Positions 20,775 to 32,430 of a stretch of 64,000 nt of DNA are shown one piece after another. The DNA is taken from positions 1,639,001-1,703,000 of the forward strand of contig NZ_CP053746.1 in assembly GCF_013201545.1 (NCBI RefSeq). The letters are read 5' to 3'. The DNA is from Pseudomonas graminis (GTDB lineage Bacteria; Pseudomonadota; Gammaproteobacteria; Pseudomonadales; Pseudomonadaceae). The translations under genes were made by a program, and so were the position numbers. The stretch's first letter is position 1; every line of letters begins with the position of its first letter. The notes under the pieces are model-generated. The model was not told the origin of the DNA. It saw only the letters and a list, made by a program, of their open reading frames with translations, and made no database searches.

Positions 20775-21698
20775 TCAGGTTGTGGCGGCGCGGTCTTGAG
20801 GAACAGGTGCCGGCTTCGGCTTGCTTTGGCTCAACACGAACCATACGGCCAGGCAGATGAGGCCGCCGCCGTAAAGGTGTCCGGCAGAGAACTTTTCACC
20901 CAGGAACATCACCCCCCACAGGACGCCGAAGGGCGGAATCAGGAAGGTGACGGTTAGCGAGCGGACCGGCCCGATGTCGGCGATCAGGCGGAAGTACAGA
21001 ATGTAAGCGCACGCCGTGCACAAGAAACCAACGGCTGCCAGTGATAGCCACACGGTTGAGTCGCCCCAGGTGGCTGGCGGGTTGACGGTCGCGGAGACGG
21101 CGAAGAAGGGCAGCAGAAACAGCGTCGCGCCAATCTGGCTACCGAATGCCACGAGCTTGGCATCCAGTCCTCCCCGATCGCCGATCCACTGACGGGTCAG
21201 GAAGCCTGCGGCGCCGTAGCAACTGGTCGCGACCAGGCAAGCGAGTGCGCCCATCACCACCGACGTGGTGAACGTCACCGGGCCTGTGGTGGTGAGTAAG
21301 GTTATGCCCAGCAAACCAAGAAATACGCCTATGGCTTTCTTGGGCGTCAGTGAGTCACTGAAAAACACAGAACCTATCAATACGCCCATCAATGGAGTGG
21401 TCGCATTCAAGATTGCGGAATAACCTGCGGGTAATAACAGGGCCGCCATGCTGTACATCAAAAACGGAATGCCGGAGTTGATGATGCCCAGGATTAAGGT
21501 GGATTTGAACTTGCCGTTGAACTCATGCCGGGTTCTTAAAATGGCCAGAATCACCATCAAGCCAATAGCGCCGAGCAACACGCGAAAGAAAGCGGTCGGC
21601 AACGCGCCCAATACCGGGGCAGCAACGCGCATGAACAGAAAACTGGCTCCCCAGATGGCGGCCAGAACAATCAGTCGAACGTAGTCGGAGACTTTCAT
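20775..21698 (-). CDS. EamA/DMT-family transporter, probable metabolite exporter
   Basis: 307 residues from the ATG at 21698, preceded by a GGAAG ribosome binding site; the longer ORF upstream has no membrane character. About ten hydrophobic segments form two EamA repeats (AAIWGASFLFMR at the start of the first). Members export amino acids and related small molecules across the inner membrane. It sits between two LysR genes and diverges from the second, which leads into the predicted hydrazine/diaminopropionate pathway, so export of the product or self-protection is a reasonable inference. Confidence 0.85.
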   Translation of the reverse strand: MKVSDYVRLIVLAAIWGASFLFMRVAAPVLGALPTAFFRVLLGAIGLMVILAILRTRHEFNGKFKSTLILGIINSGIPFLMYSMAALLLPAGYSAILNATTPLMGVLIGSVFFSDSLTPKKAIGVFLGLLGITLLTTTGPVTFTTSVVMGALACLVATSCYGAAGFLTRQWIGDRGGLDAKLVAFGSQIGATLFLLPFFAVSATVNPPATWGDSTVWLSLAAVGFLCTACAYILYFRLIADIGPVRSLTVTFLIPPFGVLWGVMFLGEKFSAGHLYGGGLICLAVWFVLSQSKPKPAPVPQDRAATT

Positions 21699-21814
21699 TG
21701 CGCTTCCTTTCTTGATCCGTATCGCTGATCCGCTGACCGAAAAGTTGTTGATTGACGCTCCTCGAGTCGGGGTGTGATGATTTGAGCAGTGTCTAGGGCG
21801 GTGCTCAAGCGAGC

Positions 21815-23167: not shown

Positions 23168-23611
23168 ATGACTGATTTCGATATTTTTCGCCCTATGGCG
23201 TGGGACAAACTGGTTCATGAATATGATCTGGATGGCGCAAGGTTACTGCCGTGGAACGGCTATCCGACGCCCATCGGCGGTGGCTGGTGCGTCGTGCGAC
23301 CCCACACCAAATCCTTGTCGCACACCCAGATAGACCAGGAATTCTTTATCGGCATCAAGGGTACCGCTCAGTTGATCGTGGGAGATCAGACCTACCCGTT
23401 CACCATGGGTGACATCGCCGCCATTCCCAAACACACCGATCACTATGTATTCAACGACACTGACGGAGACTTCCACTTCTACGTCGTGTGGTGGGACCGA
23501 GATTCCGCCAACCGCTTTCTCGATGAAGATGCCCGGCAGGCACTGGCCTCCAATGAGTTCGCCCTGCACAAGGCGACGGTTCATGACGTGTCCGATCAGA
23601 GGGCGTCGTGA
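23168..23611 (+). CDS. Small cupin, probable N-N bond-forming partner
   Basis: 147 residues from the ATG at 23168, which follows an AAGGA ribosome binding site; longer in-frame extensions are leader sequence. A single cupin barrel is visible with likely metal ligands H52, Q54, E58 (motif 1) and H89/H92 (PKHTDHY, motif 2). Its stop overlaps the start of the MetRS-like gene (TGATG). In hydrazine-forming enzymes such as Spb40 and Tri28 a cupin is fused to a MetRS-like domain and converts an N-hydroxy-amino-acid ester into an N-N linked product. Here the two appear as separate, translationally coupled proteins. Function is inferred from this pairing. Confidence 0.82.
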   Translation: MTDFDIFRPMAWDKLVHEYDLDGARLLPWNGYPTPIGGGWCVVRPHTKSLSHTQIDQEFFIGIKGTAQLIVGDQTYPFTMGDIAAIPKHTDHYVFNDTDGDFHFYVVWWDRDSANRFLDEDARQALASNEFALHKATVHDVSDQRAS

Positions 23612-25119
23612 TGGGCAAGTTACTCGTGACGATCACGCCGCCCACGCCAAATGGTGATTTGCATATCGGTCATATGGCGGGGCCGTTTCTCGCGGCAGAT
23701 ATCTTCACCCGCGCCCAACGTCAACGCGGTCACGATTGCACCCTCGTCTCATACTCCGATGACTATCAGTCCTACATGTTGCGGCGAGGAATCGAGCTGG
23801 ACCGGGCGCCTCAAACACTTGCGCTGGAGAACACCGACAAGATCAACGACACGCTGAAGAAGATGGGTATTGAAGTCGACTTCTGGATGCGCCCGTACGG
23901 CAACAGCTACTTCAAGAACGCCGTCGAGGAGATGTACGAGTACGCGGTAAAGGCGGGGGCCATTTACAAAAAAGTCAGCCAGGAACCGTATTGCGAAGAC
24001 TGTGATAAGTGGGGCTACGAAGCCTTTGGGCGGGGCAACTGCGACCACTGTGGCTCGGACTCGGATGCCAGCCAGTGCGAAGAGTGCGCGCACACGCCCA
24101 ATGCCTCGAAGATGAGTAACTTCCGCTGCAAGTTATGTGCGACGCCCATGATCTGGCGTCCCATTGAGCGTGAATTTCTGGCGCTGTCGAATTTCCGCAA
24201 CCACCTCAAAAGCACGTTCGAACATGCGCCACTACGGCCATTCATTCGCCGTTTCCTGGAGGAGGAATTCGAAATCGGTCCGGCGGACTGGGGCATTACC
24301 CGGCCTTACGATGGCGGGCTGGATCTCAAGCCCGATGGCAGCCGGCGCATACACACCTGGGTCATGGGCCTGTCCGGTTACCTGGCGGCCTTTCGCGAAT
24401 ACCTCAACGAACACAAGCTTGCGCCGTGGGAGTACGACGAATACTGCCGCTCCGGCAAAGGCCGCCTGGTGCACTTTCTGGGCTATGACTGTGCCTTCAG
24501 CCACATGATGGTTTACCCCTCGCTGCTGCAGACCATGCACGGCTATCGCATGCGCCAGACCTTCTACACCAACCAGTTCCTGACCTTGAACTGCAAGAAC
24601 CTTTCCACCAGCCGCAACTATGCGATCTGGGCGCGGGACCTGGTGGCCGACGCCTGCACTGACAGCGCGCGCTTCTATCTGGCGTTGATCGCGCCGGAGC
24701 AGGATACCGATGACTTCGATGTCGAGAAGTTCTCCGCCTGGCGTGAACACACCTTCAATGAGGTCCTGGCCAAACTGGCCACCCAGGCTGAGCGCGAACG
24801 GGTGGACGGCGACAGCCTGAAAGTCAGTGCGGCAGACGCTGCGGCCCTCAAGATTCTGGTCGCGCGCTGGTTCGAAGCCACGTCGGTGGATCACTTCAGC
24901 ATGAAGGGGCTCGCCGTGCTGCTGTCGGACATCATCAACGCCGCCCGTGATCGTCAGACCCTCGGCAAGCGGATTCTGCCGTACATGGCGCTGATCGGTG
25001 CCATCGGCGCGCCGGTGTTCCCGGATCTGGCGAAACAGATCCTGCGCTATTGCCGCTTTACTGAAAAAGAAGTCCTGCAGCAGCTGGTGTATGTCAGCGC
25101 GGTCGAGTACGAAATCTGA
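23611..25119 (+). CDS. Methionyl-tRNA-synthetase-like enzyme, probable amino-acid ligase in hydrazine formation
   Basis: 503 residues resembling class I MetRS but not a housekeeping enzyme. The HIGH signature is intact (H18-I-G-H21). Cys pairs of a zinc knuckle lie around residues 129-190 (CEDC, CDHC, CEEC, CKLC). The KMSKS loop is replaced by KNLSTS (329-334). It is shorter than MetRS and is co-translated with a cupin. In the s56-p1 and triacsin pathways such proteins activate glycine and load it on the hydroxylamine of an N-hydroxylated amino acid, after which the cupin rearranges the ester to an N-N bond. Glycine as substrate here is an inference. Confidence 0.82.
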   Translation: MGKLLVTITPPTPNGDLHIGHMAGPFLAADIFTRAQRQRGHDCTLVSYSDDYQSYMLRRGIELDRAPQTLALENTDKINDTLKKMGIEVDFWMRPYGNSYFKNAVEEMYEYAVKAGAIYKKVSQEPYCEDCDKWGYEAFGRGNCDHCGSDSDASQCEECAHTPNASKMSNFRCKLCATPMIWRPIEREFLALSNFRNHLKSTFEHAPLRPFIRRFLEEEFEIGPADWGITRPYDGGLDLKPDGSRRIHTWVMGLSGYLAAFREYLNEHKLAPWEYDEYCRSGKGRLVHFLGYDCAFSHMMVYPSLLQTMHGYRMRQTFYTNQFLTLNCKNLSTSRNYAIWARDLVADACTDSARFYLALIAPEQDTDDFDVEKFSAWREHTFNEVLAKLATQAERERVDGDSLKVSAADAAALKILVARWFEATSVDHFSMKGLAVLLSDIINAARDRQTLGKRILPYMALIGAIGAPVFPDLAKQILRYCRFTEKEVLQQLVYVSAVEYEI

Positions 25120-25139
25120 CCGAGAGGCGCGCGACGACG

Positions 25140-26264
25140 ATGAAAACTTCATTTGATGTGATCGTGATCGGGGCCGGCATCATGGGCGCTTCGATCGCAG
25201 CGGCGCTGGTTGAAAGCGGCCTCGATGTGGCGCTGATGGAGAAAGGCATCGCTGGCGCCCAGGGCGCAACGCGGGACACGGGCGGCATCGTTCGCGGTCT
25301 GGAGCTGGACGCCGCGCTGCGTCCGTTGACCCGGCGCGGATCACTTTACGGCAATCCAGGCATCGTCCACGCCCTCTACGAAAGCGCACTTAACCGCAGT
25401 GGCGTCGCTTACATCGCCAGCGCCGAAGTGTGCGGGCAATACCTGGAGGCGGTGGACAGCGAAGGCTGTGAGGGCATTGAACTGCACGCATCCGTCGATG
25501 CATTGGATAACGGCCGTTTCTCGCCATTCTGTGCCGGGGAATGCCTCCTTATCGAACGTAAGGGCGGCACGGTGGATGCCCGTGTCACGGTTTCGAACCT
25601 GTGCCGCTACGTCAGTGAAAAAGCGACGTACCTCGATCACCTTGCCGTGGATCGCTGCGTCGAACTGGACGGCCATGTTCAGGTTCATGCCGGCAAGCTG
25701 TGCCTGGAAGCGACGTGGGTGGTCGATGCCTGTGGCGCCAGCGGCCCTTTGCCCCGGCCGAGCAACGCCGTGCACGCGCGGACGATCCCCTTCACGCGCT
25801 TCGGCTGCGACCAGGCCCCGAGCATGCCGATCGTTGCTCACCATCTGAATACCTACCTGCTGCCGCTTGGACGCAATCTCGTGCAAGTGGGCGGCCAGCG
25901 ACGCCAGCGCGCAGAACATGCGGATCAGCTGAACCTGGCGCCGCTGGATAACGAGCAAGACGTTATGGACCGCGTCTCTCGTCTCGGCTACGACCGGCAC
26001 CACAGTTTGCCGGTGGTCACACAGGTCGGCTGGGACGCGTACACCGAAGACGGTCGCCCGCTGATCGGCCGTTCCAGCGCCAAGAGCCACGTCTTTATAG
26101 CCACCGGATTTTGCGGGATCGGCTTCAAAATGGCACCCAATGTTGCAGAGCTGCTGGCATTCGAGCTGGGCGGATTGATGTCCGGCGTGTCGATGGATGC
26201 GGCTTATAGATCGGTCATGGAAGCGTTCCGCCCTTCGCGATTCGCAGAGGTGGTGTTGTCATGA
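25140..26264 (+). CDS. FAD-dependent amino-acid oxidase (DAO family)
   Basis: 374 residues with an N-terminal Rossmann motif GAGIMG (11-16) and the DAO-family C-terminal FAD contact around DGRPLIGRSS and ATGFCGIGFKMAP. It starts 20 bp after the MetRS-like gene. In the hydrazinoacetate pathways (for example Tri27) a homologous oxidase cleaves the N-N linked amino acid to release hydrazinoacetic acid. The same step here is an inference from family and neighbours. It could instead oxidise another secondary amine, as glycine or sarcosine oxidases do. Confidence 0.83.
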   Translation: MKTSFDVIVIGAGIMGASIAAALVESGLDVALMEKGIAGAQGATRDTGGIVRGLELDAALRPLTRRGSLYGNPGIVHALYESALNRSGVAYIASAEVCGQYLEAVDSEGCEGIELHASVDALDNGRFSPFCAGECLLIERKGGTVDARVTVSNLCRYVSEKATYLDHLAVDRCVELDGHVQVHAGKLCLEATWVVDACGASGPLPRPSNAVHARTIPFTRFGCDQAPSMPIVAHHLNTYLLPLGRNLVQVGGQRRQRAEHADQLNLAPLDNEQDVMDRVSRLGYDRHHSLPVVTQVGWDAYTEDGRPLIGRSSAKSHVFIATGFCGIGFKMAPNVAELLAFELGGLMSGVSMDAAYRSVMEAFRPSRFAEVVLS

Positions 26265-27208
26265 TGCGCCTGGGTATCTGCGCGGCACTCGACGTCGGCA
26301 CCACACTGCACGCGCGCGGTTTCTTGCGCAGCGTGTACCTGTCCAGTCACCTGTTCCCCCATGTACGCCGCGCGCGCCATTTCTATTTTGATGACGGCGC
26401 CAGCGCTGAAGGCGGCCGTGCGGCTGCAAGGCATTTCATCGACGCGAAGGTGGATGCTGTGATTGGTCATTTTGCTTCGGACTCTGCCGCAGCAGTTGTT
26501 GAAAGTTATGCACAGGCCGGAATTCCGTTGATCCTGCCCGCGTCCACCTGCGCAGCCTTGACCGACGCCGGGAAAACCACGTTCCGCATTTGTGCGTCTG
26601 ACCGAATGTTGGCCACACGCCTTATCGAATTTGCCAAAGCTGAAGGCCTGCACAGGCTCGCTTTGTTCACTGACCCGAGCCTGCATGGGCGTCAGCAAAT
26701 GCATGAACTGCGTGAGGCAGCGCAGTTATCCACAGTCGAAGTGGTCGACGATGTGAATAACGCCGATGCCGTGGTGTTTTGCGGTCGCTTGAAAGCCAGT
26801 CGGCAGTTCCTTGTGGATAAGCGCGCTAATGGCTGCGAATTGCCCCTTTTCTTTACCGACGATGCCGCTTCGCCTGCGCTGGTGGAAGGATTGAAACGAA
26901 CCGGCACGGTGTTCGTCATCAGCTTCCCCATGGCGGGAGATCTGGCAGAGGCGCAGTCATTCGATGCGACTTATCAACAGATCTACGCCGAACAGGCGCC
27001 GGTTTACGCCGTCGAGACGCTTGCAGCGTTTGCCTTGGTGGACCGAGCCGCCGCTGATCAGCGCGAACTGCTGGACGCGCTACGTTTTGATCACTTTGCC
27101 ACCCCTGCCGGCCCTGTCAGCTTCCGCGACGGGGAGAACAATCACGCGCGGGTTTCGCTGTGGGTTTACACCGACGAGCACGCCCATGAACGACGTCTGC
27201 TGTGTTGA
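26261..27208 (+). CDS. Type-I periplasmic-binding-fold protein without signal peptide
   Basis: 315 residues overlapping the oxidase gene by 4 bp. The sequence follows the Leu/Ile/Val-binding protein fold (DAVIGHFASDSAAAV, GIPLILPASTCAALTDAG, FRICASDRMLATRLIEFAKAEG), but the N-terminus starts directly in the first beta strand and has no signal peptide or lipobox. It should therefore be cytoplasmic. Cytoplasmic members such as AmiC act as ligand sensors, so it may sense a pathway intermediate or act as a binding partner. No transporter permease is nearby. Function unknown. Confidence 0.7.
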   Translation: MMRLGICAALDVGTTLHARGFLRSVYLSSHLFPHVRRARHFYFDDGASAEGGRAAARHFIDAKVDAVIGHFASDSAAAVVESYAQAGIPLILPASTCAALTDAGKTTFRICASDRMLATRLIEFAKAEGLHRLALFTDPSLHGRQQMHELREAAQLSTVEVVDDVNNADAVVFCGRLKASRQFLVDKRANGCELPLFFTDDAASPALVEGLKRTGTVFVISFPMAGDLAEAQSFDATYQQIYAEQAPVYAVETLAAFALVDRAAADQRELLDALRFDHFATPAGPVSFRDGENNHARVSLWVYTDEHAHERRLLC

Positions 27209-27262
27209 AGCGGCCTGCCCAAACGCTTGCCACGTCTTTTGAAACTTTCAGGAAGAATGACC

Positions 27263-28621
27263 ATGACTCAGTATGAAACCGAAGGTGTGCGTGAATCGCT
27301 GGACGTCATTTCGGTCGGCTTCGGCCCGGCCGGTATCGCACTGGCTTGTGCGCTGGAAGATGACGCGGAAGACAACGGCAGAAAGCCTTTCCAGCGCGTG
27401 CGGTTCTTCGAAAAAGGGCGTGATTCAACCTGGCATGGCGCGTTTCTGCTGGCCGGTACAGACATCAACCACCATGTGTTTCGAGACCTGGTGACGCCGC
27501 GCAATCCGCGCAGTCGATTTTCCTTCGCCATGTACCTGAAGGAGATGGGGCGGCTGTACAAATTCGGATTGCTCGGACGTCCGGCCAGCCGGGTCGAATG
27601 GTCCGACTACATCGCATGGGTCGCTGCGCAACTCCAGGACTACGTTGCCTACGACGAAGGCGTGCTCGATGTATTACCGGTGGCGGAAAAGGGCATCCTG
27701 AAGGGCGTGGATGTCGTAACGGCCAAGGGCACTTATCGCACCAAGCGGCTGGTGCTTTCCCACGGCAGCCTGCCCCGGATACCGAACGCATTCAGCCCGC
27801 ATCTCGGCGGTCGTGTCTTCCACACGTCCCAGTACCTGAAAAACATCCACCTCGGCGGCGGTCCGATCGCCCAACGCTGGCTGGTGCTGGGCTCGGGTCA
27901 GAGCGCGGGCGAAGCGGTGACGCACTTGCTCGGTGCCGCGCCCACCACGCAGGTGCATTCGGTGCACCGCGGTGTGGGTTTCAAGGTGGGACAGCTGGGA
28001 CAGTTCCCCAACATGGCGTTCCTGCCGGAGCACGTCGACTATTTCCACGACCTGGAGCCGGGCCGCCGCAACCGGGTGTTTGAAGAAATCCGGTCGACCA
28101 ATTACGCAGGCATCGACGTCGACGAGAGTCAGTCGCTTTACTCCTTCATGTACGAAGGCGAGGTCACCGGCCACCGACGTCTGAACTTGCATGCGTGGTC
28201 CGAAGTGACGTCGGTGGAAAAGGTGGGCGATGCCTATTCGGTGGTGCTGCGTGACAGCAATACCGGCGTTGAAACCGTGCTGTACGTCGACGGGATTGTC
28301 CTGGGCACCGGCTACGAACAGCTCGCAGTGCCGCCGCTGCTGACCCTGCTGCAACCCTGGCTGGTGCGCGACGAGGACGGCACGCTTGCGGTCGACCGGC
28401 ATTACCGCGTTGCCCTGCAGCACAGCGAGGGCGTGCAGATTTTGGCCAACGGCACGTCGGAAAAGACCCACGGAATCAGCGACGCTCAGTCGTTTTCCAT
28501 GGTCGCCCTCCGTGCGCAGCACCTGACCGATGCGTTGCTGGCGACCCAGCCCCGGCAGCGCGCGCCGGTGGTGACCATGCCGAGCTACACCCGGCCTGCA
28601 CGCGTCGAGGCACGGCCATGA
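27263..28621 (+). CDS. Flavin-dependent amino-acid N-hydroxylase (lysine/ornithine N-monooxygenase family)
   Basis: 452 residues from the ATG at 27263, seven bases after AGGAAG; upstream in-frame starts are poorly placed. FAD motif GFGPAG (19-24), NADPH motif GSGQSAGE (210-217) and the late GTGY motif mark the class B N-hydroxylating monooxygenases. These enzymes convert the side-chain amine of lysine or ornithine to a hydroxylamine. In hydrazine pathways (Spb38, Tri26) the hydroxylamine is the electrophilic nitrogen used by the cupin/MetRS-like enzyme. Lysine is the likely substrate by analogy; diaminopropionate, made by the next two genes, is another possibility. Confidence 0.88.
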   Translation: MTQYETEGVRESLDVISVGFGPAGIALACALEDDAEDNGRKPFQRVRFFEKGRDSTWHGAFLLAGTDINHHVFRDLVTPRNPRSRFSFAMYLKEMGRLYKFGLLGRPASRVEWSDYIAWVAAQLQDYVAYDEGVLDVLPVAEKGILKGVDVVTAKGTYRTKRLVLSHGSLPRIPNAFSPHLGGRVFHTSQYLKNIHLGGGPIAQRWLVLGSGQSAGEAVTHLLGAAPTTQVHSVHRGVGFKVGQLGQFPNMAFLPEHVDYFHDLEPGRRNRVFEEIRSTNYAGIDVDESQSLYSFMYEGEVTGHRRLNLHAWSEVTSVEKVGDAYSVVLRDSNTGVETVLYVDGIVLGTGYEQLAVPPLLTLLQPWLVRDEDGTLAVDRHYRVALQHSEGVQILANGTSEKTHGISDAQSFSMVALRAQHLTDALLATQPRQRAPVVTMPSYTRPARVEARP

Positions 28622-29637
28622 ACTTCATTTCCCACATCGTCGGCGATTCGAACTTCGTCAGGGTAAAAGGCTTGGGTTTTGAAAACCTGCACCTGAAGCT
28701 TGAGTCCTGCAACCCTGCGGGCTCGATCAAGATGAAGACGGCCATTGGCTTGATCGATTCCTACGCGGAGCGCCGACTTATCCACAAGGACACCGTGCTG
28801 ATCGAGTCCTCGTCCGGGAACCTCGGCGTGGCGTTGGCGATGATCTGCGCCGAGCGCGGTTACAAGTTCTGCTGCGTCGTCGACCCCAACACCAACCTGC
28901 ACAACATCAAGATGATGGAAGCCTTTGGCGCGCAGATCGTCATCGTCACCGAGCGCGATGACAACGATGGCTATCTGGGCACCCGCATTCGTTACATCCG
29001 CGATGCCGTGGCCCGCGATCCCCGTCATCTGTGGCTCAACCAGTACAGCAACCCGGCCAACGCCAAGACCCACGAACACACCACGGCGCGCTCGATTCAT
29101 ATCGCGTTTCCGGCGCTGGACTACCTGGTCGTCGGCGCCGGCACCACCGGTACCTTGATGGGCTGTGTGCAGTATTTCCGCAAGCATTCGCCGCGCACCG
29201 AGATCATCGCGGTGGACAGTGCGGGTTCGGTGACTTTCGGTCAGGCACCCGGCCCGCGCTTCATTCCGGGACTTGGCTCCAGCCAGATGCCGCCGATATT
29301 CCGCGCCCATCAGTTGCACAAGCAGCAAGTGGTGGATGAGCGCGCCACCGTGGCCATGTGTCGCTGGCTGGCGAAATCCAATGGCGTCCTGGCCGGCGGC
29401 TCCACCGGGACCGTGGTGGCCGGGTTGGCCTCGCCCTCGCTGGGGATTCCCAAAGACGCCGTTGTCGTGGCGATTTCCCCGGACGCCGGCGAGCGTTACC
29501 TGGAAACCATCTACAACGATGAGTGGGTCATGCAGAAGTTCGGCCGCGCCGAGCTGACTGCGCTCAGCTCGCAACCGATCACCCGGTATCTGAAGCAGTA
29601 CGTCCACACGTTCGAGGGAGAAGCGCTGAATGTCTGA
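28618..29637 (+). CDS. SbnA-like PLP enzyme (N-(2-amino-2-carboxyethyl)-glutamate synthase)
   Basis: 339 residues of the cysteine-synthase fold. The Schiff-base lysine is K38 in NPAGSIKMK, the SSGNLG loop (65-70) binds the substrate carboxylate, and GAGTTGT binds the PLP phosphate. Its start overlaps the hydroxylase stop (ATGA). SbnA joins O-phosphoserine and glutamate; paired with SbnB it gives L-2,3-diaminopropionate (Dap). The direct adjacency to an SbnB-like gene supports that reaction over cysteine synthesis. A beta-substitution using a hydrazine nucleophile is an alternative worth keeping in mind. Confidence 0.88.
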   Translation: MNFISHIVGDSNFVRVKGLGFENLHLKLESCNPAGSIKMKTAIGLIDSYAERRLIHKDTVLIESSSGNLGVALAMICAERGYKFCCVVDPNTNLHNIKMMEAFGAQIVIVTERDDNDGYLGTRIRYIRDAVARDPRHLWLNQYSNPANAKTHEHTTARSIHIAFPALDYLVVGAGTTGTLMGCVQYFRKHSPRTEIIAVDSAGSVTFGQAPGPRFIPGLGSSQMPPIFRAHQLHKQQVVDERATVAMCRWLAKSNGVLAGGSTGTVVAGLASPSLGIPKDAVVVAISPDAGERYLETIYNDEWVMQKFGRAELTALSSQPITRYLKQYVHTFEGEALNV

Positions 29638-30637
29638 CTTTCACGTGATCCCCGGCGCAGTCATCAAAGACATCCTCGACAGCCACGCCCACGACATGGT
29701 GCGGCGCATCGAGCAGGTGTATCTGCAGCACCACGACGGCCAGACGCTCAACCCGGACAGCTACTTTCTGCGTTTCCCTAAACAGCCTGCCAACCGGATC
29801 ATCGCGCTGCCGGCGGCGCTGGAGGGAGAGGATGCCGTGGCCGGGATCAAGTGGATCTCGAGCTTTCCCGGCAATGTCGCTCAGCAGAAGCCCAGGGCGT
29901 CAGCCGTGGTGATCCTCAACGACCGCGAGACTGGCTATCCCTTCGCCTGCCTAGAAGGTGCGCAGATCAGCGCGGTGCGAACGGCTGCTTCGGCGGCGTC
30001 GGGCGCCTACTGGCTCAACGGTCAGTCACGTAAGGCTGCATGCGTAGGATTTATCGGGGCTGGGGTGATTGCCCGCACCATCGCGCGAATGCTCAGCGTT
30101 GAAGGATGGGATATCGGCCACGCCGTTGTGCACGACTTTGACATGGCGTCTGCAGACGCTTTGACAGGCTTTATCGAAGATGTCGACTTATGCACAGCCC
30201 GGACTGGCTCGCTGGAACAGGCGTTGGCAGCCGATCTGGTGATCTTCGCCACCACGGCCGGCGAGCCTTACGTCAAACCGCCTTTGGCATTTCGCGCCGG
30301 GCAGGTTGTGTTGAACATTTCGTTGCGGGACATCGCGCCCCAGTTGCTACTGGAGGCGAACAACCTCTGCGACGACATCGAGCACTGCATGAAGGCCAAC
30401 ACATCGCCGCATCTGGCCGAGCAATTGACCGGCAGCCGCGCTTTCGTGAACGGCACGCTGGCCGGCCTCATCCGTGGCGAGGTCGAGCTTGATCCTGCGA
30501 AGCCCTCGATCTTCTCGCCTTTCGGCCTGGGCGTGTTGGACCTGGCCTTGAGCAAATTCATCGTCGACACCGCACTGGCAGAATCCCGTGGCATCGCCAT
30601 TGAGTCGTTCTTCGGAGAAACCCTGAGATGGAACTGA
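29630..30637 (+). CDS. SbnB-like dehydrogenase of the ornithine cyclodeaminase family
   Basis: 335 residues overlapping the SbnA-like gene by 8 bp. The NAD-binding motif GFIGAG lies at 140-145, and the N-terminal domain has the KWISSFPGN and VVILNDRETGYPFACLEG pattern typical of the SbnB branch of the OCD/mu-crystallin family. SbnB oxidatively hydrolyses N-(2-amino-2-carboxyethyl)-glutamate to Dap and 2-oxoglutarate. The pair therefore predicts Dap supply for the product of this operon, as in staphyloferrin B and viomycin-type pathways. Confidence 0.87.
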   Translation: MSDFHVIPGAVIKDILDSHAHDMVRRIEQVYLQHHDGQTLNPDSYFLRFPKQPANRIIALPAALEGEDAVAGIKWISSFPGNVAQQKPRASAVVILNDRETGYPFACLEGAQISAVRTAASAASGAYWLNGQSRKAACVGFIGAGVIARTIARMLSVEGWDIGHAVVHDFDMASADALTGFIEDVDLCTARTGSLEQALAADLVIFATTAGEPYVKPPLAFRAGQVVLNISLRDIAPQLLLEANNLCDDIEHCMKANTSPHLAEQLTGSRAFVNGTLAGLIRGEVELDPAKPSIFSPFGLGVLDLALSKFIVDTALAESRGIAIESFFGETLRWN

Positions 30638-32430
30638 GCGCAGCGCTGGCCGGCGAAAAGTTATCCCCAGGCTCTGATAAACCCGCCATCAGACTCGGTA
30701 TCGTCGGTTGCGGCTCACGCGGGCTGACGGTGCTTGAGCGCATCTGTGCGCTGGCGGTCAATACGCCCCGGCAGATCGAGGTAAACGTATTCGACCCCCA
30801 GACCCCGGGGCCAGGCTTGCACGCCGTCGACCAGCCTGAATACCTGATGCTCAACACCGTTGCCTCGCAGATTTCGATGTTTCCAGACACGGCCGCCCTC
30901 GACGGGCACACAGGACGCCAAGGACCCAACTTTTACGAATGGTGCCTGCGTTTTAAATCGACTGAACGCAGCGTACGACCCAACGAATTCCTGCCGCGCC
31001 GCTGGCTGGGGGAGTATCTGGCGTGGACTTACGAGGAAGTCGTTCGCAGTCTGCCGGGGAACGTGCGCGTCGTTCATCATCCGCACGCTGTGGATAACAT
31101 TGAGCACACCGACATGGGCCAGTTTGTTCTTTCCACAGCCGAGGTCGAGTGTTCGGTGGATTGGCTGGCAATCACAGTGGGTCATGCGCGGCGGTTGCAG
31201 GATGATGATAAGGAACTGCCCGGAGCGTTCACAAAGGAAGCACACCTTGATTCGCGCGATTTCAAGTTATCCACAGAAGCGGTTGGCATCGAAGGATTAG
31301 GCCTGACCGCCATGGACGTCGTTGCCGATCTGACGGTTGGTCGCGGAGGCCAATTCACCAAATGGGCGGAAGGCTTACGCTATAAGCCCAGTGGGCGAGA
31401 GCCGCGTATCTATATGTTCTCGCGCAGTGGTCTGCCGTATCGCACACGGCCGGACATCGTGCCTCATCGGACCTCGAATGCGGCACTGATTTTTACGTTG
31501 TCGGCTATCGCTAATCTGCGAACGGAAAACCCTGCCGGATTGGATTTCGAGCAGCAGGTCCTGCCGTTGATTAAGGCTGAAATGCTCGCGGAATACTTCG
31601 GGATGATCGCCTCCCAAAAAGGCGAATCGGCAGTGAGGATCAAAGCGGAAGTTGCGCGCGCGTATTACTCAGGCCGGCTTGAAACCATGTCGTCAGAAAT
31701 GACAGCACGTTTCAACTCGCCGCCACTGGACGAGACTGTGTATAACCCGCGCATGTCTATCATGGAATCTGCTGACTACGCCCAGGCCATGCGCGCATTC
31801 ATCGAACGCGACATCGGGCAGAGCCTTTTGGGACTTGATGCAAGCCCGATTAAAGCCGCGGTTGAGGTGTGGAGAAGTTGTCGTGAGCAGCTCCGCCGCG
31901 TTGTGGATAACCGAGGGCTAACAGCTGATTCGAGCCGTATCTTTTTCGGAGAATATGCGCCGCACGTCAATCAAATGGTGGCCGGGCCGCAAAAGGAACG
32001 TCACCAGGAGCTGCTGGCTTTGGCCGACGCAGGAATTGTCCATTGGGTGCGCCATGCTCAAGTTATCCACAGTGCCGAGGGAGCGGGGCCGGAAGTGGTA
32101 CTCGCGGGCAATCTGGCGATGCCCTTAAATAGAATTATTAAGGCTCACGTCAGCACTGCCTGTGACATATCGTCGCTGCCAAAGATCATTCGCTCGCTAC
32201 AGAGCAACGGAATTATCCACAGTCTGGCCGAGAACGGTGAGGGCGTGCTTGTAGACGGTGAAGGCAAAGCACAACCGAATCTGTGGATAACCGGCCCACT
32301 GGTGGAAGGGTCGACCTACTACAACCACTATGTCCCATCCTCGGGCAGTTATTCCCGTGCCTTCGTCGATGCCGACCGAATTGCTCGTGAGATGTTGGGG
32401 TTGAATGTGGACGTCAGGGCAATAGTTTGA
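30628..32430 (+). CDS. FAD/NAD(P)-binding protein of unknown reaction, last gene of the operon
   Basis: 600 residues overlapping the previous gene by 10 bp. The N-terminal dinucleotide-binding motif is GIVGCGSRG (24-32), in the style of the FAD-NAD(P)-binding family PF13454 (recognised from memory). MLNTVASQISMFP and a NEFLPRRWLGEYL stretch also fit that family. The C-terminal half is unlike the classical hydroxylases and I cannot assign a reaction. Being translationally coupled to the Dap genes, it probably oxidises Dap or a later intermediate. Six perfect TTATCCACA words (either strand) lie in its second half and middle, unrelated to any repeated peptide. Confidence 0.8.
   Translation: MELSAALAGEKLSPGSDKPAIRLGIVGCGSRGLTVLERICALAVNTPRQIEVNVFDPQTPGPGLHAVDQPEYLMLNTVASQISMFPDTAALDGHTGRQGPNFYEWCLRFKSTERSVRPNEFLPRRWLGEYLAWTYEEVVRSLPGNVRVVHHPHAVDNIEHTDMGQFVLSTAEVECSVDWLAITVGHARRLQDDDKELPGAFTKEAHLDSRDFKLSTEAVGIEGLGLTAMDVVADLTVGRGGQFTKWAEGLRYKPSGREPRIYMFSRSGLPYRTRPDIVPHRTSNAALIFTLSAIANLRTENPAGLDFEQQVLPLIKAEMLAEYFGMIASQKGESAVRIKAEVARAYYSGRLETMSSEMTARFNSPPLDETVYNPRMSIMESADYAQAMRAFIERDIGQSLLGLDASPIKAAVEVWRSCREQLRRVVDNRGLTADSSRIFFGEYAPHVNQMVAGPQKERHQELLALADAGIVHWVRHAQVIHSAEGAGPEVVLAGNLAMPLNRIIKAHVSTACDISSLPKIIRSLQSNGIIHSLAENGEGVLVDGEGKAQPNLWITGPLVEGSTYYNHYVPSSGSYSRAFVDADRIAREMLGLNVDVRAIV

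What the first reader, a model, noticed from the sequence alone, without database searches (positions are those of the whole stretch)
23168..32430. Operon combining hydrazine (N-N bond) chemistry with diaminopropionate synthesis
Eight tightly overlapping genes encode a cupin, a MetRS-like ligase, a DAO-type oxidase, a PBP-fold protein, an N-hydroxylase, SbnA-like and SbnB-like enzymes and a 600-residue flavoprotein. N-hydroxylase + cupin + MetRS-like + oxidase matches the hydrazinoacetate module of s56-p1 and triacsin pathways. SbnA/SbnB is the Dap module. I know of no described pseudomonad product that joins the two, and there is no NRPS, carrier protein or ATP-grasp. The product may be a small free amino acid with an N-N bond, exported by the EamA protein.
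Basis: partly seen in the sequence, partly recalled or inferred. Interest (0 to 1): 0.93.

Follow-up and report, generated by a model that had tools for sequence, protein, structure and literature searches.

The report
Diaminopropionate-fed nitrogen–nitrogen bond operon
Eight overlapping or closely spaced genes, found in the same order in 50 related bacterial loci, encode a predicted pathway that would make an unusual diamino acid and then likely build from it a small compound with a rare nitrogen–nitrogen bond, whose identity is unknown.

Summary
The eight genes are real, intact and in the stated order. Of 72 loci with a related MetRS-like gene, 53 carry SbnA and 50 of those keep all eight genes in order. 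The other 19 lack SbnA/SbnB; 13 of them carry a diaminobutyrate transaminase, and none of the 72 carries both. So the diaminopropionate (Dap) pair most likely feeds the N-N chemistry. The 600-residue flavoprotein is a full-length homologue of L-aspartate N-hydroxylase (CreE/FzmM family) with changed aspartate-contacting residues. In the 72 loci it occurs only with SbnA. Twelve other pseudomonad genomes carry SbnA-SbnB-flavoprotein as a separate six-gene operon (one with a broken SbnA). I read the window as two joined modules, Dap N-oxygenation plus hydrazine formation, predicted to give a Dap-derived N-N amino acid. Which of the two N-oxygenases hydroxylates Dap is open. The hydrazinoacetate (s56-p1/triacsin) match and EamA export are not supported. 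Two catalytic features of proven hydrazine synthetases differ here, so membership is unproven. The MetRS/cupin/NMO association in P. syringae and Photorhabdus was reported in 2010 (PMC2922099); a Dap-fed version was not found in my eight answered searches.

The parts
23168..23611 (+). cupin; predicted N-N-forming partner of the MetRS-like protein (module H)
   Evidence: Cupin_2; best solved relative plu4264, 4mv2/4q29, E 1.6e-42; metal-site residues H52, Q54, E58, H92
23611..25119 (+). MetRS-like ligase, 502 aa; predicted to adenylate an amino acid and load it on an N-hydroxy amine (module H)
   Evidence: tRNA-synt_1g; paralogue clade apart from housekeeping MetRS; loop NLSTSR
25140..26264 (+). 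DAO-family FAD oxidoreductase; predicted to cleave the hydrazine conjugate (module H)
   Evidence: PF01266, 3.5e-30; found in 53 of 53 SbnA loci
26261..27208 (+). class I periplasmic-binding-protein fold without signal peptide; predicted cytosolic amino-acid binder (module H)
27263..28621 (+). lysine/ornithine-type flavin N-monooxygenase NMO (module H)
   Evidence: PF13434, 2.2e-72; best solved relative 5cqf, 497.5 bits; tree
28618..29637 (+). SbnA-like PLP enzyme, Dap synthesis step 1 (module D)
   Evidence: TIGR03945 393.6 bits, cut-off 349.95
29630..30637 (+). SbnB-like dehydrogenase, Dap synthesis step 2 (module D)
   Evidence: TIGR03944 386.5 bits, cut-off 326.9; fused to SbnA in 31 of 51 loci where both were found
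30628..32430 (+). FNB: 600-aa CreE/FzmM-type flavin N-oxygenase, predicted substrate Dap or a Dap derivative (module D)
   Evidence: NAD_binding_9; only PDB match with E below 1e-10 is 8cp2/8cp5, E 3.7e-48 over residues 22-588; residues
21855..22763 (+). GcvA-type LysR regulator upstream; flank of the P. graminis-type loci only, not part of the conserved unit
   Evidence: present in 16 of 16 P. graminis-type loci
20775..21701 (-). EamA transporter, divergent flank; not shown to belong
   Evidence: PF00892

Best explanation
The operon encodes homologues of enzymes for a predicted two-module pathway in which L-2,3-diaminopropionate (Dap), predicted to be made by SbnA and SbnB, would be N-hydroxylated and then likely joined through a nitrogen-nitrogen bond to a second amino acid by the MetRS-like and cupin proteins. 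Module D is SbnA-SbnB-FNB: Dap would be made from O-phosphoserine and glutamate (known SbnA/SbnB chemistry, recalled), and FNB, a CreE/FzmM-type N-oxygenase, would most likely oxygenate a nitrogen of Dap. Module H is cupin-MetRS-DAO-PBP-NMO: the MetRS-like protein would adenylate an amino acid and pass it to the N-hydroxy amine, and the cupin would rearrange the ester to a hydrazine, as PyrN does. The DAO enzyme would then release a Dap-derived hydrazine, plausibly 3-hydrazinoalanine, the one-carbon-shorter analogue of the Apy10 product. The PBP would hold an amino-acid intermediate or product in the cytosol, and NMO would supply a second N-oxidation. Shown by my calls: gene content, order, co-occurrence, homology and residue changes. 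Inferred: every reaction, the order of steps, the FNB/NMO division of labour, and the product.
For: Supply-module exchange: of 72 loci, 53 have SbnA, 13 have a diaminobutyrate transaminase, 0 have both and 6 have neither (transaminase identity for four representatives). The cupin metal-site Gln and the MetRS loop Asn follow the exchange exactly: the Gln is in all 53 SbnA loci and the window and in no other row of 78; the Asn is in the same 54 rows plus the fragmentary L064, of 85 rows. SbnA and SbnB are fused in 31 of 51 loci. FNB is in 50 of 53 SbnA loci and 0 of 19 others. In 398 Pseudomonas genomes, all 29 with a MetRS-like protein at 46% identity or more also have FNB and an over-cut-off SbnA; these overlap with the 72 loci and are not independent. 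Another 12 genomes have SbnA-SbnB-FNB-GST-permease-MocR in one order, without a close MetRS-like gene (SbnA broken in L104), which ties FNB to Dap rather than to the hydrazine. FNB keeps R266, R409, R412 and N62 of the solved Asp N-hydroxylase in 51 of 51 sequences, but lacks R577 in 51 of 51 and has D/E at N413 in 49 of 51. Precedent for MetRS/cupin/NMO/DAO chemistry, including diaminobutyrate as the hydroxylated amine: PMC11705231 section 15 and PMC8664883 passages.
Against: The cupin has Gln at the position of PyrN His52 / RHS1 His65; PyrN H52A is severely impaired and RHS1 H65A loses zinc. The KFSTSR-loop lysine is Asn in this clade, and a lysine of that motif, K458, is essential in PyrN; that K458 is this lysine is my inference. 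The NMO clade of the window includes the second NMO of Photorhabdus and Serratia, whose 3 genomes have no SbnA or SbnB over the cut-offs, so this NMO type does not need Dap. FNB's solved relative oxidises iteratively past the hydroxylamine, whereas MetRS/cupin needs a mono-hydroxylamine. The acidic residue at position 413 is also in FNB homologues of unrelated clusters, so it is weak evidence for Dap. Nine further genomes have 30-35% FNB homologues; in the three fetched no SbnA was found. No reference hydrazine synthetase with assayed activity was in my tree. No metabolite data exist.
Confidence: 0.5

Rival explanations
1. Same pathway, other division of labour: NMO hydroxylates the beta-nitrogen of Dap for the MetRS/cupin step, and FNB is a late tailoring oxygenase acting on the hydrazine or the alpha-amine.
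For: Characterised MetRS/cupin pathways in the review use a lysine/ornithine-type NMO as the hydroxylase. NMO is in 53 of 53 SbnA loci and its clade is sister to the NMOs that accompany the diaminobutyrate transaminase. Such an enzyme would stop at the hydroxylamine.
Against: SbnA-SbnB-FNB stands alone in 12 genomes, so FNB needs no hydrazine. In Photorhabdus and Serratia an NMO of the window's clade coexists with a diaminobutyrate-type NMO and no Dap synthase.
Confidence: 0.3
2. FNB oxidises an amine to a nitroso or nitro compound and the product is a nitro, nitramine or N-nitroso-hydroxylamine (alanosine-like) amino acid rather than a free hydrazine.
For: FNB's only solved relative is the iterative Asp N-hydroxylase. 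In alanosine an N3-hydroxy-Dap intermediate and CreD/CreE homologues have been proposed (PMC11705231 passages).
Against: No CreD-type lyase lies among the eight conserved genes. FNB lacks R577 and mostly N413, and the engineered N413E enzyme did not hydroxylate aspartate. Alanosine uses no MetRS-like protein that I know of (recalled).
Confidence: 0.1
3. The MetRS-like protein is a peptide ligase and the product is a modified dipeptide, as proposed in 2010 before hydrazine synthetases were known.
For: PMC2922099 sections and passages proposed a Met-Lys dipeptide for this MetRS/cupin/NMO family; cupin and loop residues here differ from proven hydrazine synthetases.
Against: Later work showed that family members form N-N bonds (PMC8664883 passages; PMC11705231). 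The catalytic cupin Glu is kept in all 78 rows.
Confidence: 0.05

Closest known systems
Actinopyridazinone pathway, Apy9/Apy10/Apy11 (PMC11705231 section 15)
   Same: N-hydroxylated short diamino acid (diaminobutyrate), MetRS/cupin N-N bond formation, DAO-type cleavage that keeps the diamino acid
   Different: Diaminobutyrate and alanine; Streptomyces; no PBP or CreE-type enzyme mentioned in the section read. Sequence not available here, so its place in my tree is untested
por cluster of Pseudomonas orientalis, Por9/Por11 (PMC11705231 section 15)
   Same: Pseudomonad hydrazine synthetase with its N-hydroxylase
   Different: Glycine conjugates of N-hydroxy-diaminobutyrate or a second N-hydroxy amino acid (L-28, which I take to be ornithine-derived); no Dap module mentioned
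s56-p1 Spb38-40, triacsin Tri26-28, azaserine, PyrN (PMC11705231, PMC8664883)
   Same: NMO, DAO-type enzyme (s56-p1, triacsin) and MetRS/cupin chemistry
   Different: Lysine-derived; didomain proteins; HxHxxxE metal site in PyrN; hydrazinoacetate released in the first three, glutamate conjugate in PyrN
Paralogous MtRS/cupin/lysine N6-monooxygenase neighbourhoods (PMC2922099, 2010)
   Same: Same core, listed for P. syringae and Photorhabdus; PBPs, cysteine synthase, ornithine cyclodeaminase and diaminobutyrate transaminase noted among neighbours
   Different: Read as dipeptide synthesis; in the part read, the cysteine synthase and cyclodeaminase were not recognised as a Dap pair and no module exchange was described
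CreE/FzmM L-aspartate N-hydroxylases (PMC10404684)
   Same: FNB is homologous over its length; arginine cluster and flavin-site Asn kept
   Different: Asp-contacting N413 and R577 changed; no CreD partner in the operon
SbnA/SbnB of staphyloferrin B (PMC3179956, search listing only)
   Same: Dap synthesis pair over curated cut-offs
   Different: No siderophore synthetase in the window's operon

Membership tests
MetRS-like/cupin hydrazine synthetase (PyrN, Spb40 type) | MetRS paralogue distinct from housekeeping MetRS, with adjacent or fused cupin | tested here: met
   Tree of 84 sequences; adjacent cupin found in 70 of 72 loci, 53 of 53 with SbnA
MetRS-like/cupin hydrazine synthetase (PyrN, Spb40 type) | Catalytic cupin Glu (PyrN E56, RHS1 E69) and last metal-site His | tested here: met
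   E58 and H92 positions conserved in 78 of 78 rows
MetRS-like/cupin hydrazine synthetase (PyrN, Spb40 type) | Second metal-site His (PyrN H52, RHS1 H65) | tested here: not met
   Gln54 in the window and all 53 SbnA loci; Asn in 12 and His in 12 other rows
MetRS-like/cupin hydrazine synthetase (PyrN, Spb40 type) | Lysine of the ATP-binding loop (PyrN K458) | tested here: inconclusive
   KFSTSR lysine is Asn here, but PyrN itself was not in the alignment; the match to K458 is inferred
MetRS-like/cupin hydrazine synthetase (PyrN, Spb40 type) | ATP-dependent N-N bond formation | not testable with these tools
   Needs enzyme assay; filed as 'works like', not as a proven member
SbnA/SbnB Dap synthase | Both enzymes over curated equivalog cut-offs and adjacent | tested here: met
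   fused in 31 of 51 loci
CreE/FzmM aspartate N-hydroxylase | Full-length homology and catalytic arginine cluster | tested here: met
   E 3.7e-48, residues 22-588; R266, R409, R412 in 51 of 51 and R13, R416 in 49 of 51
CreE/FzmM aspartate N-hydroxylase | Aspartate-contacting Asn413 and Arg577 | tested here: not met
   N413 is D/E in 49 of 51; R577 absent in 51 of 51
CreE/FzmM aspartate N-hydroxylase | CreD-type lyase partner in the cluster | tested here: not met
   None among the eight genes by Pfam; elsewhere in the genome not searched
Spb39/Tri27/Apy10 oxidative cleavage enzyme | DAO-family FAD enzyme in the cluster | tested here: met
   PF01266, 53 of 53 SbnA loci
Spb39/Tri27/Apy10 oxidative cleavage enzyme | Which C-N bond is cleaved | not testable with these tools
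   Needs assay

The most novel reading that the evidence does not exclude
The operon fuses a self-standing Dap N-oxygenation module (SbnA-SbnB-CreE-like enzyme) with a PBP-containing hydrazine module. The CreE-like enzyme, not the lysine/ornithine-type NMO, makes the hydroxylamine used for N-N bond formation. The released product is a free Dap-derived hydrazino amino acid, held by a cytosolic amino-acid-binding protein and used as an antimetabolite by plant-associated pseudomonads.
Probability: 0.25. Interest if true: 0.87.

Novelty: new variant of a known kind. Interest (0 to 1): 0.7.

Why it matters
Of the hydrazine synthetase pathways in the review section I read, none uses Dap, although N-hydroxy-diaminobutyrate is used. 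A Dap-fed version would extend the substrate range of enzymatic N-N bond formation and predicts a new small amino acid in many pseudomonads, including species of the P. syringae complex. It also links a CreE-type N-oxygenase to Dap, both in this operon and in a separate six-gene operon, and recasts a recurring 'ABC transporter substrate-binding protein' as a likely cytosolic pathway component. Each step can be tested with single purified proteins.

Tried and rejected
Hydrazinoacetate (s56-p1/triacsin) assignment: rejected as unsupported, because the nearest relatives are diaminobutyrate-associated and motif residues differ. EamA as dedicated exporter: not supported. Nitrite generation by FNB: no CreD-type partner in the operon. 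Siderophore: no siderophore synthetase in the eight genes. Acidic residue at FNB 413 as proof of Dap binding: weakened, since it also occurs in FNB homologues beside aminomutase and asparagine-synthase-like genes. R276 of the Asp hydroxylase aligns poorly (R in 4 of 51, other residues) and is not used. DEC hits beside Paraburkholderia loci L024/L025 (24-25% identity) taken as unrelated. MetRS amino-acid choice could not be deduced: the pocket study cited in the review is not held. Gene trees for SbnB and FNB did not resolve whether the six-gene operon predates the fusion; in the SbnA tree the two are sister groups. A second structure job and a viral fold search were not used.

Limits: the 72 loci come from a scan for two peptide patterns, so relatives without them are missing; the genus counts share strains with those loci. 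The gene table for loci used tblastn at 40% query coverage. Detection of cupin failed in L064 and L074.
Full report
Check of the observation. The eight ORFs at 23168-32430 are intact, on one strand, and five of seven junctions overlap. The window lies in a single 5.52-Mb contig. Eighteen of the 19 genomes in that search gave a match; apart from the window's own gene these were at 22-30% identity, as for housekeeping MetRS or other tRNA synthetases.

Spread. A scan of one genome per species with an alignment of MetRS-like proteins gave 72 confirmed loci. By tblastn, 53 have SbnA, and 50 of these have cupin, MetRS, DAO, PBP, NMO, SbnA, SbnB and FNB in that order. L024 and L052 stop at contig ends, and L024 has the first 236 residues of FNB. 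L050 is broken: on the same contig, SbnB and FNB lie about 8 kb from SbnA in the other orientation (L110). Record titles place these loci in Pseudomonas (P. graminis-type, P. syringae complex and others), Burkholderia and Paraburkholderia. SbnA and SbnB are one ORF in 31 of the 51 loci where both were found.

Exchange of the supply module. The 19 other loci (Photorhabdus, Serratia, Kordia, Fischerella, Vibrio and others) lack SbnA, SbnB and FNB; 13 carry a class III aminotransferase. Four representatives of it score best against diaminobutyrate-2-oxoglutarate transaminase models. No locus has both supply modules. Two residues follow the exchange exactly: the second metal-site position of the cupin is Gln in all 53 SbnA loci and the window and in no other row of 78, and the MetRS loop residue before the STS motif is Asn in the same 54 rows plus the fragmentary L064, of 85 rows. 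The simplest reading is that the diamino acid is the amine that becomes N-hydroxylated and enters the N-N chemistry.

The flavoprotein. FNB has one PDB match with E below 1e-10, the L-aspartate N-hydroxylase 8cp2/8cp5, over almost its whole length. From PMC10404684 (abstract, passages, sections 4 and 8): that enzyme oxidises aspartate repeatedly to nitrosuccinate, and changing Asn413 to Glu abolishes aspartate hydroxylation. Across 51 FNB sequences R266, R409, R412 and N62 are invariant, R577 is absent in all, and N413 is acidic in 49. So it is predicted to be an N-oxygenase of another substrate. In 398 Pseudomonas genomes, SbnA over its cut-off is in 43: 29 with the MetRS-like operon gene at 46% identity or more, 11 with SbnA-SbnB-FNB elsewhere, and 3 without an FNB match at 1e-40. 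All 29 also have FNB. Twelve genomes, one with SbnA in pieces, have SbnA-SbnB-FNB-GST-lactate-permease-like-MocR in one order without a close MetRS-like gene. This makes SbnA-SbnB-FNB a module of its own and Dap FNB's most likely substrate. Against overreach: nine more genomes have 30-35% homologues, and the three of these fetched had no SbnA nearby.

The hydrazine module. In the tree, the 54 Dap-type MetRS-like sequences group together (support 0.81), sister to Photorhabdus and Serratia, then to the other diaminobutyrate-associated and related sequences, then to didomain types with the NMO-DAO-didomain order; seven housekeeping MetRS lie apart. The NMO tree has two sister clades: 57 sequences (window, 53 SbnA loci, and the second NMO of the two Photorhabdus and one Serratia loci) and 14 others, 11 of them from loci with the transaminase. 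The Photorhabdus and Serratia genomes have no SbnA or SbnB over the cut-offs (0 of 3). So the window-type NMO does not depend on Dap, and which enzyme hydroxylates Dap stays open. I favour FNB, with the NMO reading as the main rival.

Comparison with what is known. MetRS/cupin pairs that join N-hydroxy amines to amino acids are established (PMC8664883 passages; PMC11705231 section 15), including diaminobutyrate in Apy9 and a pseudomonad example in Por11. The MetRS/cupin/NMO association in P. syringae and Photorhabdus was reported in PMC2922099 (2010; passages, abstract, first part of section 7), which also lists cysteine synthase and ornithine cyclodeaminase among neighbours and proposes a dipeptide. 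Literature searches listed no paper on a Dap-fed hydrazine pathway or a SbnA-SbnB-CreE-like operon; subscription papers, including the 2024 phylogeny-guided survey, could not be read. PMC12154649 and PMC13061610 were seen as passages only.

Membership. Two features speak against simply filing this as a hydrazine synthetase: Gln at the second metal position and Asn in the ATP loop. It may still work like one. FNB fails the aspartate-binding test and is not an aspartate hydroxylase by sequence.

Verdict. A real, widely kept operon; a new variant of a known kind; the reactions and product are predictions.

Noticed in passing
L101-L104, L117-L124 (other pseudomonads): Standalone six-gene operon SbnA-SbnB-FNB-GST-lactate-permease-like-MocR in 12 genomes of the 398 searched; SbnA is in pieces in L104. 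The GST hints at an electrophilic product. No description found in my searches.
   Followed up: partly
L105:7792-13888 (and L111): More distant FNB homologues (30%) beside a KamA-family aminomutase-like gene and an asparagine-synthase-like gene with a transporter; possibly another N-oxygenase pathway.
   Followed up: partly
L082 (Pantoea agglomerans plasmid): cupin, MetRS-like, FAD oxidoreductase, MFS, ATP-grasp, cytosolic-type PBP and GNAT genes together; no N-monooxygenase is annotated within the 17 kb fetched.
   Followed up: no
L081 (Xenorhabdus plasmid pXT29): A 28.9-kb plasmid carries a diaminobutyrate-type cluster with adenylation, GNAT, ornithine-type monooxygenase and ectB-annotated genes beside Tn3 and recombinase genes.
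   Followed up: no
L050 / L110: In P. syringae pv. cilantro 0788_9 the operon is split: SbnB and FNB lie about 8 kb from SbnA in the opposite orientation.
   Followed up: partly
L070 / L107: The contig titled Pantoea sp. Cy-639 is the same sequence as a genome that the search tool counts in the window's genus; the record name is probably wrong.
   Followed up: yes
L057, L059, L060: Photorhabdus and Serratia clusters carry two N-monooxygenases of different clades plus a PLP decarboxylase next to the diaminobutyrate transaminase cluster; the role of the second one is unexplained.
   Followed up: partly
G026: A genome labelled same species as the window carries only a diverged (49%) MetRS-like gene; either the label is wrong or two operon versions occur under one name.
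   Followed up: no
187 Escherichia plasmid records gave MetRS-like matches below 60% identity; not examined.
   Followed up: no
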